A DNA stretch of 64,000 nucleotides from Puffinus mauretanicus (lineage: Eukaryota; Chordata; Aves; Procellariiformes; Procellariidae), in the NCBI GenBank assembly GCA_023333565.1, contig JAJKFH010000482.1, positions 177,450 to 241,449 of the forward strand. Direction: 5' to 3'. This document shows positions 47,096 to 50,641 of the stretch, piece after piece. The position numbers and the translations under genes are program-made. The notes below the pieces were generated by a model, which saw nothing but the letters and a program-made list of their open reading frames with translations, had not been told where the DNA came from and ran no database searches. Each line of letters opens with the position of its first letter. Position 1 is the first letter of the stretch.

Positions 47096-47265
47096 GTTGG
47101 ACGGCGCCGCTCTGGCCGCTCGCCTCGGTGGTGGCTCCCGCCCGGGCCCGCGGCCAGCGAGAGCGACGGCCAGAGCGGCCCCCGCGCGGTTCCTCCAGCC
47201 GCGCGCTTCCGCCCCCGCCTCGGTGGCTGCGCCGTTGCCGTGGAGACGGAAGATGGCGGCCGCAG
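47096..47265. promoter_or_regulatory. Divergent CYB561A3/TMEM138 promoter with X-box-like and YY1-like motifs
   Basis: A CpG-dense, TATA-less interval of about 140 bp separates the CYB561A3 upstream ATG (47093-47095) from a composite motif at 47234-47260. That motif consists of GTTGCCGTGGAGAC (RFX X-box-like) followed by GGAAGATGGCGGC (ETS/YY1-like). The likely TMEM138 non-coding exon 1 ends at 47265, before a GTCAGC donor. Its ATG at 47253 would start a short upstream open frame in the spliced mRNA. Confidence 0.6.
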
Positions 47266-48440
47266 GTCAGCGCTCGGCCGCTCCCGGGGTGCGGAGGGTG
47301 GGACGCGGCGGGGACCACCGGCACCCGCAGCCCCGGGCACCGCGGGTTGCCTGTGCACCGGGGGAGCGGCCCCCGGAGGCGGGGGGCACGGCGGCCTACC
47401 GGGGCGGGGGGTGGGCGGCGGTGGCACTGCGGCCTCTTAGGGACTGGGGTCGGGGGTTGCATGGGGACACAAGAGGGGACCCGCGGGCCACGCATGGAGA
47501 GGACGGTGGGGGTGGCATGGGAGCCGGGGTGCGGAGAGCTGCCCCCTTTCCCGCCCCATGTCCAGCCCTGTGGCTCCCTTTCGGAGAAGGAAGGCCTCAG
47601 CGCAGCACCCTCCTGCCAGGACACGTTCTCCTGGACCCCCCCATCCCTCCGAGCACCACCTTACCTCCCTCTGTGTCACGTCCCTCTTTCCCTGGCACTG
47701 CCGTGCCACTGTCCCCAGGCAGCGCAGGCCCGGGGCTGGCTGTCAGCGGTGGGAGAAGCGGGCAGGAGGGCCGTGCCCCCTCACTCGTCCCCAGACAGCC
47801 CCGTTCCCTCACTGCGTCCTCGTCCCCTCTCTGACCAGCTGCCCCAGGCAGGGTGTGCGGTCCTGGGGTGGGGCGAAGGAGAGCAATGCTGGGACACGGC
47901 GTGCCCAAACCTGCCCCCATAGCGTGGCCTGCTCAGCACTGCCCACTGAGCCGTCAGCAGCTTTAGGGTTTGTCCAGCGTGAGGGGTGTGAATAACCTGC
48001 CTGGACGCTGCTCCCCGGGACTCGCACGTCTCCCTCGTCTCCCTGAATTTCTTCCCATCTGTTTCCCGAAATCGGGGTGGCTGTGAGGCTGGAGGGTGGG
48101 GGAGGAGAGACCGAACCTGAGCCCGCTGTGTGGTGAGAAGAGAGGAGAAATAGCTTATTTGTGAGAGCCCAGCTACAGACCAGGGCAGAGCACGGCTCTG
48201 CCTTGGCGTGCTAGAAATTAGCAGGGGCTGCTGTTGGCTTGACCTTCCTTTGGGTTTCCTGGCAGAGGAGGTTTGCGAGGAGCAGGAGGGTGCGTCCCAC
48301 CCTGCCAAACGAAACCTCCACTCCCCTTCCAGGTCCCGGCTGCAGGGAGAGGCGACGCTGAGCCCCTCAGCTCCGAACCATGAGCTGGATCTGCCGCTGG
48401 GGATGCTGGGGCTGAGGGCTCCAACCCCCGGAGAAGGAAG

Positions 48441-49951
48441 ATGCTCCAGACCAGCAACTACAGCCTGGTGCTGTTCCTGCAGTTCCTTCTGCTTTTCTAC
48501 GACCTCTTCGTCAACTCTTTCTCGGAGCTGCTCCGCACGGCTCCTGCCGTCCAGCTCGTCCTCTTCATGTGAGTGCCAGGTGGGCGTAGCGGGTAATGCG
48601 GTGGGGCAGGAGAGCTGGGGTCTCACCAGGTTCTCTCTCCTCCTGCAGCATCCAGGACATCGCTATTCTCTTCAACGTCATCATCATCTTCCTCATGTTC
48701 TTCAACACCTTCGTCTTCCAGGCCGGGCTGGTCAATCTCCTCTTCCACAAGTTCAAGGGGACCATCCTACTGTCGGCGGCCTACCTGGTGCTCAGCATCT
48801 CCTTCCACGTCTGGGTTATGGTAGGCTGAGGCGGGCTCGGGGCTGCCGGCTTCTCCCGAGGGCAGGCAGCACAGGCAGCCGTTCACTCCTGCTGTCCCCT
48901 GAGAGGAAGGCCACGATCTACCACCGCAGGGACAGTCTGGTGTCCCCCTGTGATTCCCTGCACGACCACCCTGTAGGCATTGGGCTGGAAGGGAGCTGCC
49001 CCATCCCGGCCCCTTCCCTAGGGACCGTGACCTGCCGGAAAATCCTCTTTCACCAAGGGAAGCCCAGCAGCTCCAGTTCTGTGCTGGCACAGGAGCCCAC
49101 GCTGGGGTAATCCCCGCTGAAGTCCATGACAGCAGCTCCTGGTTTACCTGGGATTAATCCCCAGCAAACGCCAGCGCTCAGAGCCTGGGGGCAGCCCCCT
49201 CCCCACTGGTGCCAAGTGGCACCGAGGGCTGTCAGGGTTCGTGGCTCTGTCCCCTTCTCTCCCTCATCTAAACTCCCTCCTGTCCCCTGCCCCAGCCACC
49301 AGCCCTCTCGGTCCCCCCTCCAGCCTCTGAGCGAGGGTCCGTCCCCACCCCGGGGCCGGGGGCCGCCCCGCGCCAGGCTGCCCGAGCAGGTGGCCGCGCC
49401 GGTTGCTGCCCACGCCATCCGGGCAGGGGATTGACGGGGATTTGCAAGGATCTGAACTCTGAAGCTAGAATAGGTCCCGGCTCGCTGGCTAAATCCCCTG
49501 AGCTGCTTAACCTTTGGGGTGGGGGGCTGCTCCCCCAGCCAGCAGCGTCGCCCCTGGCCCGTGCAACGGCCTCGGGGCCGGCAGCACACCGGGCTGAGGG
49601 GTGCTGCCCCCAAACTAACGCACGGGTTATTCCTGGCTCCTGTCCGTCTGTCTGTCTCAGAACCTGCGGTGGCGGGACTCCAGCCGCTTCGTGTGGACCG
49701 AAGGCCTGCAGACCCTTTTCGTTTTTCAGCGGCTGGGTAAGGGCTCGTGGTCACAGGGTCCCTGGTGGGGTCCTGCCCCTTTTGGGGAGCCTGCGGGGGC
49801 GAAGGTGGGTGCCCACCCTCACCCCCTCCCTCCCGCAGCGGCCGTGCTCTACTGTTACTTCTACAAGAGGACGGCGGTGCATCTGGGCGACCCCCTCTTC
49901 TACCAGGACTCACTCTGGCTGCGCAAGGAGTTTGCGCAGTTCCGCGGCTGA
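48441..49951 (+). CDS. TMEM138: Transmembrane protein 138 (ciliary)
   Basis: Small multi-pass membrane protein needed for ciliogenesis and transport to the ciliary transition zone; mutated in human Joubert syndrome. Coding exons: 48441-48568, 48649-48820, 49661-49736, 49839-49951. They total 489 nt, 162 residues, the same length as human. Four hydrophobic segments are visible: about 8-25, 41-62 (with FLMFFNTFVF), 75-93 and 118-135 (with VLYCYFYKR). The protein opens MLQTSNYSLVL and ends LRKEFAQFRG. The 5' UTR is spliced; acceptors at 48331-48332 or 48343-48344 are plausible. Its poly(A) signal lies only about 0.4 kb before the TMEM216 start, so the two ciliopathy genes are tightly head-to-tail. 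Confidence 0.95.
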
Positions 49952-50234
49952 TGGCTCCCCTCGGGCTCTGGGTGACCCGCCGTCTCTCCCCTCGGCTCCC
50001 CGGCAGCTCCCGCCGTCTCTCTGCACCTCACGGGCCCCGCTGGGGACGGTTCCGGCTCGGGCACCTTCCTCCTCTTCCTCCCGGGGACCAGCCGTTCCGC
50101 CGGCGCTGGCACAGCTCGTGCGAATGCCGGGAGTTGGTGGGAGGCTCACGGTGCGTCCCGGCTGTGTGGCGGGAAGGTCCGTCCCAGTGTCACAGCCCCT
50201 GTTGGGATTTGAGTGTTTTTGTAAACAGTAAAGA

Positions 50235-50240
50235 AATAAA
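50235..50240 (+). terminator. TMEM138: TMEM138 polyadenylation signal
   Basis: AATAAA lies 284 bp after the TMEM138 stop codon and 394 bp before the TMEM216 start codon. Confidence 0.85.
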
Positions 50241-50495
50241 TTGGCTGCGTTTTCCAGTGGCTGCCTGCCGTCTGTGCGCCCCGGGACCCCCCGGCTCTTC
50301 CCTTCCTCCCGGTGACAGCGGCTGCCATCCCGGCAGCCCTACCCCGGCCCTGGCCAGCTCAGCGCTGTGCTTGCAGGCACAGAACGGGGCTGTTCCCACC
50401 TTGCAGCCTGGGACGCTCGGCCCAACGTAGGAACGGAGACACAGCCGGAGGGCAGCTGGGGCTCGCCGCCCGCCCGGCCCCGCAGGCCCTCGGCC

Positions 50496-50551
50496 GGGCG
50501 CGGGACTCGAACCCGCGGCTCAGCGGCCCAGTCCTCCTGAGCCATAGAGAG
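50496..50551 (-). other. tRNA-like remnant with A-box and B-box
   Basis: On the minus strand, TGGCTCAGGAGG (50544-50533) fits a Pol III A-box and GGTTCGAGTCC (50513-50503) fits the B-box exactly. The B-box sits in a perfect T-arm: a 5-bp GCGGG/CCCGC stem with a 7-nt loop. The D-arm side forms a GGCTCAG/CTGAGCC hairpin. The two boxes are about 13 nt closer than in a tRNA, leaving no room for an anticodon arm, and the flanking acceptor strands do not pair. It is therefore a tRNA-derived relic or a TFIIIC-type site, not a working tRNA gene. Confidence 0.45.
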
Positions 50552-50614
50552 GGCGGAGAGAGCGGCCGGGCGCCTTCCCGCCCAGCGCTCCCGGGAGCGA
50601 GGGCGGCGGCGGCG

Positions 50615-50641
50615 GTTCCCATGGAGATGGAAGATGGCGCC
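50615..50641 (+). promoter_or_regulatory. TMEM216: X-box-like/YY1-like element overlapping TMEM216 start codon
   Basis: GTTCCCATGGAGAT followed by GGAAGATGGCGCC matches the element at 47234-47260 upstream of TMEM138 at 23 of 27 positions. The TMEM216 start codon is the ATG inside the AAGATGGCG part. The first half resembles an RFX X-box and the second half a YY1 site. Both binding assignments are inferred from motif similarity. Confidence 0.55.

What the first reader, a model, noticed from the sequence alone, without database searches (positions are those of the whole stretch)
47234..50641. Near-identical 27-bp X-box-like plus AAGATGGCG element at the starts of TMEM138 and TMEM216
47234-47260 and 50615-50641 agree at 23 of 27 positions: GTT[G/C]CC[G/A]TGGAGA[C/T]GG, then AAGATGGCG[G/C]C. 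The first part resembles an RFX X-box, the usual ciliary-gene site; the second is YY1-like. These two unrelated ciliopathy genes became neighbours in the tetrapod lineage and are reported to be co-regulated through RFX-type control in mammals. A shared core-promoter element in both genes would explain coordination without a distal enhancer.
Basis: partly seen in the sequence, partly recalled or inferred. Interest (0 to 1): 0.75.

Follow-up and report, generated by a model that had tools for sequence, protein, structure and literature searches.

The report
X-box plus start-site promoter element
Two neighbouring cilium genes of a bird both begin with the same pair of short control sites, one of the type bound by the cilium-gene regulators called RFX and one around an ATG at the gene start, and in one of the genes this layout appears to have been kept at the same distance from the start codon in fish, reptiles and mammals, so it looks like a real promoter design rather than a coincidence.

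Summary
In detail: 47234-47260 and 50615-50641 agree at 23 of 27 bases, and no other place in the window comes within 3 mismatches of their joint pattern. In TMEM216 the ATG of AAGATGGCG is the start codon; in TMEM138 it is an upstream ATG in non-coding exon 1 with a 13-codon uORF. AAGATGGCGGC fits TISU, a YY1-bound element just downstream of transcription starts. The X-box score alone is no better than chance; conservation is the evidence. TMEM216 gene models with N-terminal extensions read through the site: 16 of 17 could encode an X-box ending exactly 5 nt before the start codon, against 0 of 1098 tests at other offsets, in turtle, rhea, mammals and fish. Quail and turtle TMEM138 models fit the right half at the same spacing. 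Flanks look unrelated. Best reading: an RFX X-box abutting a YY1/TISU core promoter, used by both genes. In TMEM216 it looks older than tetrapods, so it was not created by their neighbourhood; binding and co-regulation in birds are inferred. An in-frame TMEM138-TMEM216 read-through isoform is a rival route to coordination.

The parts
47234..47247 (+). X-box-like RFX site of TMEM138, GTTGCCGTGGAGAC (6-2-6 inverted half-sites)
   Evidence: sequence; matches RYYNCCNNGGNRRY and, by eye, the consensus RYYNYY N1-3 RRNRAC quoted in PMC2375033; 3 mismatches to GTTGCCATGGCAAC
47248..47249 (+). 2-bp spacer GG between X-box and AAGATGG
   Evidence: sequence
47249..47260 (+). TISU/YY1-type element GAAGATGGCGGC; 12 of 12 to the recalled consensus SAASATGGCGGC (its first base is the second spacer base)
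   Evidence: sequence; consensus recalled, TISU described in passages of PMC2518114
47253..47265 (+). upstream ATG and first 13 nt of a 13-codon uORF (MAAAGPGCRERRR*) in non-coding exon 1 of TMEM138; donor after 47265
   Evidence: splice and translation; same exon-1 junction in quail P0250
48333..48361 (+). remainder of the TMEM138 uORF at the start of exon 2
   Evidence: end worked out by hand from the 42-nt length
48441..49951 (+). TMEM138 coding exons 48441-48568, 48649-48820, 49661-49736, 49839-49951
   Evidence: 162-aa translation; Pfam PF14935, E 1.3e-46
50615..50628 (+). X-box-like RFX site of TMEM216, GTTCCCATGGAGAT
   Evidence: sequence; 4 mismatches to GTTGCCATGGCAAC; conserved position in database proteins
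50621..50623 (+). ATG inside the TMEM216 X-box, out of frame with the start codon; open for 66 codons on the spliced exons
50630..50641 (+). TISU-like element GAAGATGGCGCC, 11 of 12 to the recalled consensus; its ATG at 50634-50636 is the TMEM216 start codon
   Evidence: MAPR-type start shared with bird, reptile and mammal proteins
50634..50646 (+). coding part of TMEM216 exon 1 (13 nt), donor GTGAGT from 50647
50823..50924 (+). TMEM216 exon 2; also the acceptor of a possible in-frame TMEM138-TMEM216 read-through splice from 49736
   Evidence: fusion reading frame; proteins P0122, P0125-P0128, P0131, P0139, P0146

Best explanation
Each copy is a core promoter made of two known kinds of site at a set distance: an RFX X-box, 2 bp, then a YY1-type TISU whose ATG begins 5 nt after the X-box. 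RFX factors at the X-box make the promoter respond in ciliated cells; YY1 at the TISU sets or supports the transcription start. In TMEM216 the same letters are the start codon, and if its 5' UTR is as short as in other TISU-start genes (median 12 nt), transcription begins inside the X-box. In TMEM138 the TISU ATG opens a short uORF and translation starts in exon 2. The two genes share the design because both are RFX-driven transition-zone genes, not because one promoter copied the other. Shown: the letters, the coding role of each ATG, a conserved X-box-compatible position in TMEM216, partial conservation in TMEM138. Inferred: factor binding in birds, start sites, co-regulation.
For: 16 of 17 TMEM216 entries whose models run at least 6 residues upstream of the MA start can encode RYYNCCNNGGNRRY ending 5 nt before the ATG; 0 of 1098 entry-by-offset tests at the other offsets from 0 to 99 nt can. 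The residues before the start are FPWRWK in turtle, SPWRCK in rhea, F/S-P-W-G/E-L/R then a variable residue in 11 mammals, LPRGLK in gorilla and gibbon, FPWRSN in Culter. Pelican and horse models that start at the out-of-frame ATG fit the right half and AARATGG at the same spacing. For TMEM138, two database models that use exon 1 (turtle P0207, quail P0250) fit the right half, the gap and ATGGNGG, and quail exon 1 joins exon 3 at the junction predicted here. Start codon and uORF. TISU passages: 64% of such genes start translation at its ATG, one orientation, near the start site, bound by YY1 (PMC2518114). RFX2 is listed as binding both genes in mouse testis (PMC4498915 passage).
Against: Neither half stands out by score in this GC-rich window. 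The back-translation test asks whether an X-box is possible, not whether it is there, and the 17 entries are related (13 are mammals). Danio aesculapii misses by one base. The ape rows lack the W codon and fit only with particular codons. The peptide could be conserved as protein where a long isoform is translated. Some TMEM216 models start 100 nt or more upstream, which, if their transcripts are real, puts a start upstream of the X-box. For TMEM138 the left half-site could not be tested outside the window, quail departs from AAG before the ATG, and the mammal TMEM138 models seem by eye to start in other 5' exons; a hamster model with KMAA lacks the X-box codons before it. In the RFX2 paper's passage neither gene is among those whose expression changed. 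No start-site or binding data for birds.
Confidence: 0.7

Rival explanations
1. Chance convergence in CpG-island promoters: YY1/TISU sites and X-box-like sites are both common, and they happened to fall at the same spacing twice.
For: Each half alone is at about the expected frequency in the window; the TISU motif is found in about 4% of human genes (PMC2518114 passage).
Against: X-box-compatible codons at one offset in TMEM216 entries from fish to mammals, 16 of 17 against 0 of 1098 tests elsewhere; partial conservation in TMEM138.
Confidence: 0.12
2. The upstream codons are conserved as protein: TMEM216 has a real longer N-terminus and the X-box likeness is a by-product of coding.
For: Several database models, among them ape and whale ones, start upstream in frame.
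Against: By eye, similarity between fish, sauropsid and mammal rows begins at the X-box codons and not before, and the upstream starts differ between rows. Codons -3 to -1 vary (R/G/E/Q, W/C/L/R/S, K/R/T/N/D) yet still fit the X-box. TMEM138, whose protein does not start there, has the same layout.
Confidence: 0.08
3. The two genes are coordinated mainly by read-through: transcription from the TMEM138 promoter continues into TMEM216, and splicing from the penultimate TMEM138 exon to TMEM216 exon 2 yields one fused protein. The two promoters need not be matched.
For: The splice is in frame in this window. Eight database proteins carry both Pfam domains: one deer, one echidna, four non-avian reptiles, two birds. 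The AATAAA after TMEM138 ends 375 bp before the TMEM216 element.
Against: By their names the entries are gene predictions (inferred); their abundance is unknown; the fused form skips the TMEM216 start exon, so it does not replace TMEM216 itself. It could act beside the matched promoters rather than instead of them.
Confidence: 0.2
4. One promoter was copied to the other gene, or the two were homogenised after the genes became neighbours.
For: 23 of 27 identity on the same strand; the tool extends the pair to 51 nt at 73%, and the 24 nt after the core are 54% identical, a stretch that holds both splice donors.
Against: 50-bp flanks are 34% (upstream) and 44% (downstream) identical; random pairs give 34% with SD 7% and a 95th percentile of 46%. 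The X-box-compatible position is present in Culter, a fish group in which linkage is reported absent for zebrafish (PMC7312350).
Confidence: 0.04

Closest known systems
RFX X-box in ciliary gene promoters (Drosophila, mouse)
   Same: 6-N-6 imperfect inverted half-sites close to the gene start, conserved in position; [quoted passage not shown] RFX2 sites lie very close to the start site in the majority of mouse targets (PMC4498915 passage)
   Different: Here the X-box ends 5 nt before a TISU ATG; in TMEM216 that ATG is the start codon, so the factor's footprint would overlap the transcription start and 5' UTR (inferred)
[quoted passage not shown]
   Same: AAGATGGCG(G/C)C in + orientation at the gene start; TMEM216 is of the start-codon class and TMEM138 of the class where the ORF starts downstream, both described in passages of PMC2518114
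   Different: An X-box abuts it; the TMEM216 copy departs from the recalled consensus at position 11
TMEM138-TMEM216 cis-regulatory module bound by RFX4 (Lee et al. 2012; seen only through passages of the reviews PMC3631122 and PMC12148096)
   Same: Same gene pair, same factor family
   Different: The reviews place that element in the region between the genes (interval of about 23 kb), not as one copy at each gene start; its sequence could not be compared

Membership tests
RFX X-box | two RYYNCC-type half-sites, 1-3 bp apart, in inverted order | tested here: met
   both sites match RYYNCCNNGGNRRY; by eye both also match RYYNYY N1-3 RRNRAC (quoted), TMEM216 on the - strand
RFX X-box | score above background in its own sequence (my own criterion) | tested here: not met
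   3 and 4 mismatches to GTTGCCATGGCAAC; no clear excess over 20 simulations
RFX X-box | conserved site at conserved position in orthologues, TMEM216 | tested here: met
   16 of 17 entries compatible at one offset, 0 of 1098 tests at others; compatibility by back-translation, not DNA
RFX X-box | conserved site at conserved position in orthologues, TMEM138 | tested here: inconclusive
   right half only, in 2 models (turtle, quail) of the 16 that do not start ML[QR], among 127 TMEM138-bearing proteins held
RFX X-box | RFX binding in vivo | not testable with these tools
   literature only: RFX2 listed at both genes in mouse testis (PMC4498915 passage)
TISU | SAASATGGCGGC (recalled) in + orientation | tested here: met
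   12 of 12 in TMEM138; 11 of 12 in TMEM216 (letters)
TISU | lies within +30 of the transcription start; very short 5' UTR when its ATG starts the protein | not testable with these tools
   no CAGE or cDNA for this bird
TISU | its ATG starts the protein (64% of genes) or lies in the 5' UTR with the ORF starting downstream (36%) | tested here: met
   start codon in TMEM216; stopped uORF in TMEM138; class sizes from PMC2518114
TISU | YY1 binding | not testable with these tools
   no data seen for these genes
Lee 2012 RFX4 intergenic module | element in the TMEM138-TMEM216 intergenic region | not tested
   paper not held; the elements here lie at the gene starts

The most novel reading that the evidence does not exclude
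X-box and TISU form one composite core promoter with fixed spacing, used by a class of ciliary genes: RFX binds over the transcription start itself, YY1 follows at the start codon, and the same letters serve transcription, start-site choice and short-leader translation. Its position in TMEM216 has been held since the common ancestor of cypriniform fish and mammals.
Probability: 0.3. Interest if true: 0.68.

Novelty: new variant of a known kind. Interest (0 to 1): 0.47.

Why it matters
It offers a simple account of why two unrelated neighbouring ciliopathy genes could respond alike: each carries the same RFX-plus-TISU start, with no need for a shared distal element. It also suggests that the TMEM216 element is older than the tetrapod linkage reported in reviews, which separates co-regulation from neighbourhood. 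If the composite is common, ciliary genes would have a readable core-promoter grammar, and human variants in the first 20 bases before the TMEM216 MAPR start would be worth reading as promoter variants.

Tried and rejected
Promoter duplication or conversion: flanks look unrelated beyond a short stretch that holds the splice donors. Judging the X-box by score alone: not informative. A tRNA-like stretch between the genes: ARAGORN (bacterial code) found no tRNA and Rfam gave 0 matches at gathering score and three weak ones with E 0.9-1.4, none a tRNA. Mammalian TMEM138 exon 1: by eye the models held start in other exons; a hamster KMAA stretch lacks the X-box codons and a whale model with a possible ATGGNGAY stretch lacks the left half (by eye). 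Retinitis pigmentosa variant TMEM216 c.-69G>A lowers chromatin accessibility (PMC13394472 passages); by its number it should lie upstream of the X-box, but its exact relation was not tested.

Genome-wide spacing test: planned with the genome search on the window's own genome, never answered, so whether other ciliary genes carry the composite is open. Four paper searches bearing on the composite and two on TMEM138-TMEM216 read-through (10 of 1,187 listed, 3 listed) showed no title or abstract start that describes either; most listed papers were not opened, and most subscription papers are not held. So I do not claim that it is not in print.

Rows dropped: the back-translation test used the 17 of 75 MA-start proteins that have at least 6 upstream residues, out of 150 proteins held (which reported 245 and 259 hits, the best 120 listed each). 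P0142 (opossum relative) has no MA start and P0130 (no organism named) misfits by eye; neither is in the 17. Compatible stretches elsewhere that look like chance: P0086, P0131, P0197; P0131.
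Full report
What is there. The two 27-bp copies are real, on the same strand and at the given coordinates, with 23 of 27 letters equal. They are the only places in the window within 3 mismatches of their joint pattern, and they hold the only two exact AAGATGGCG. In the 21 kb from 37 to 58 kb (same strand, at least 60 bp apart) 10 collapsed pairs of places reach 23 of 27; only two others have similar complexity and both lie in a local tandem repeat. Taken singly, X-box-like sites and AAGATGGCG-like sites (one mismatch allowed) occur about as often as shuffles or simulations predict.

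What the letters do. Splicing the window's exons gives a complete 162-aa TMEM138 and the first 136 residues of TMEM216, beginning MAPRSRQRSSAPLQ, with Pfam matches PF14935 and PF09799. The nearest database proteins are from birds, so the window is a bird's. The ATG in the TMEM216 copy (50634-50636) is the start codon, with the X-box ending 5 nt before it. The ATG in the TMEM138 copy (47253-47255) is in exon 1 and opens a uORF that ends in exon 2 before the real start at 48441. The second half therefore reads as TISU (consensus SAASATGGCGGC recalled): 12 of 12 in TMEM138 and 11 of 12 in TMEM216. Passages of the TISU paper say that 64% of such genes start translation at its ATG with a median 5' UTR of 12 nt, that in the other 36% it lies in the 5' UTR, that it occurs in one orientation near the start site, and that YY1 binds it (PMC2518114). 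The TMEM216 X-box also holds an out-of-frame ATG at 50621, open for 66 codons on the spliced exons. A leader that includes it would expose it to scanning ribosomes, which fits a start inside the X-box; this is an inference.

Conservation of TMEM216. No vertebrate DNA other than the window could be searched, but the protein database holds many vertebrate gene models. Some TMEM216 models run upstream of the MA start and so translate the X-box. Of 150 proteins held, 75 have an MA start and 17 of these have 6 or more residues upstream. For 16 of the 17, codons exist that would make RYYNCCNNGGNRRY end exactly 5 nt before the ATG; at the other offsets up to 99 nt, where the extension is long enough, 0 of 1098 tests fit. 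The 17 comprise one turtle, one rhea, 13 mammals (placentals, one opossum, gorilla and gibbon among them) and two cypriniform fish. The miss is Danio aesculapii, off at one base. The ape rows fit only with particular codons. Pelican and horse models that start at the out-of-frame ATG fit the right half, the spacing and AARATGG. The entries share ancestry, so 16 of 17 is not 16 independent events; the point is that fish, sauropsid and mammal rows agree at one offset and at no other.

Conservation of TMEM138. This is harder because exon 1 is non-coding. Of 127 TMEM138-bearing proteins held, 16 do not start ML[QR]. Two of them, turtle P0207 and quail P0250, fit the right X-box half, the 5-nt gap and ATGGNGG from their first base; one other compatible stretch lies far inside an unrelated part of P0131. 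Quail exon 1 joins exon 3 at the junction that the window predicts (MEAGHGGRG|IQDI against VETEDGGRS|IQDI). In quail the bases before the ATG depart from AAG. The left half-site is untested outside the window.

Origin. The 50-bp flanks of the two copies are 34% (upstream) and 44% (downstream) identical; random pairs give 34%, SD 7%, 95th percentile 46%; the first 24 nt downstream, which hold the splice donors, are 54% identical. A copied promoter is not indicated. A review passage says that the genes are closely linked in tetrapods but not in Xenopus tropicalis or zebrafish (PMC7312350). A 2013 paper by Venkatesh et al. on basal vertebrates appears in a reference list and was not held; from recall it argues for an older linkage. 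Either way the TMEM216 site seems to be present in fish and does not depend on being next to TMEM138.

Function. RFX2 is listed as bound at Tmem216 and Tmem138, with most transition-zone genes, in mouse testis; the same passage names only Tctn1 and Tmem231 as changing as described there, so binding did not show as a strong expression effect for our two genes in that tissue (PMC4498915 passage). Two reviews report RFX4 acting through a conserved element between the genes (PMC3631122, PMC12148096). A site at each promoter is compatible with this and simpler, but I could not test whether it is enough. Passages of a Drosophila RFX paper warn that an X-box near a start is not predictive by itself while a conserved one is a better sign (PMC2375033); that is why the conservation test carries the weight here.

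Another route to coordination. Splicing TMEM138 exon 4 (phase 1) to TMEM216 exon 2 (phase 1) keeps the frame here. Eight of the proteins held carry both domains, six of them 262 aa long, in a deer, echidna, Komodo dragon, anole, horned lizard, green turtle, king vulture and kiskadee (common names recalled). This is an annotated isoform whose abundance is unknown.

Verdict. A real feature, conserved as far as gene models can show, built from two known kinds of site; the fixed joint layout is the uncommon part. Generality was not tested because the genome search did not complete. On re-checking, confidence in the best explanation was lowered from 0.72 to 0.70 for the RFX2 expression result and for models that start upstream of the X-box, and the copied-promoter rival was raised from 0.03 to 0.04 for the 54% stretch.

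Noticed in passing
49736 to 50823 (splice), TMEM138 and TMEM216: An in-frame TMEM138-TMEM216 read-through isoform is possible here, and 8 database proteins from a deer, echidna, reptiles and birds carry both domains.
   Followed up: partly
47093 to 47234: TMEM138 may share a CpG-island promoter head to head with CYB561A3 (b561-like FNWHPVLM near 45.5 kb on the - strand; gene name recalled); a - strand ATG in CAACATGGAGG lies near 47093.
   Followed up: no
50485-50556, - strand: Between the two genes lies a stretch with a tRNA-B-box-like GGGTTCGAGTCCC and a GGCTCAG...CTGAGCC inverted repeat; ARAGORN (bacterial code) and Rfam give no tRNA.
   Followed up: partly
46735-46925: Imperfect tandem repeat of about 63-64 bp.
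   Followed up: no
38105 and about 8870: A DDB1-like start on the - strand ([10 protein letters not shown]) and a pepsin-like DTGSS exon on the + strand mark the gene order (names recalled).
   Followed up: no
50621-50646 and on into exon 2: An out-of-frame ATG inside the TMEM216 X-box opens a frame of 66 codons on the spliced exons; the pelican model P0005 starts with the matching residues MEMEDGG.
   Followed up: partly
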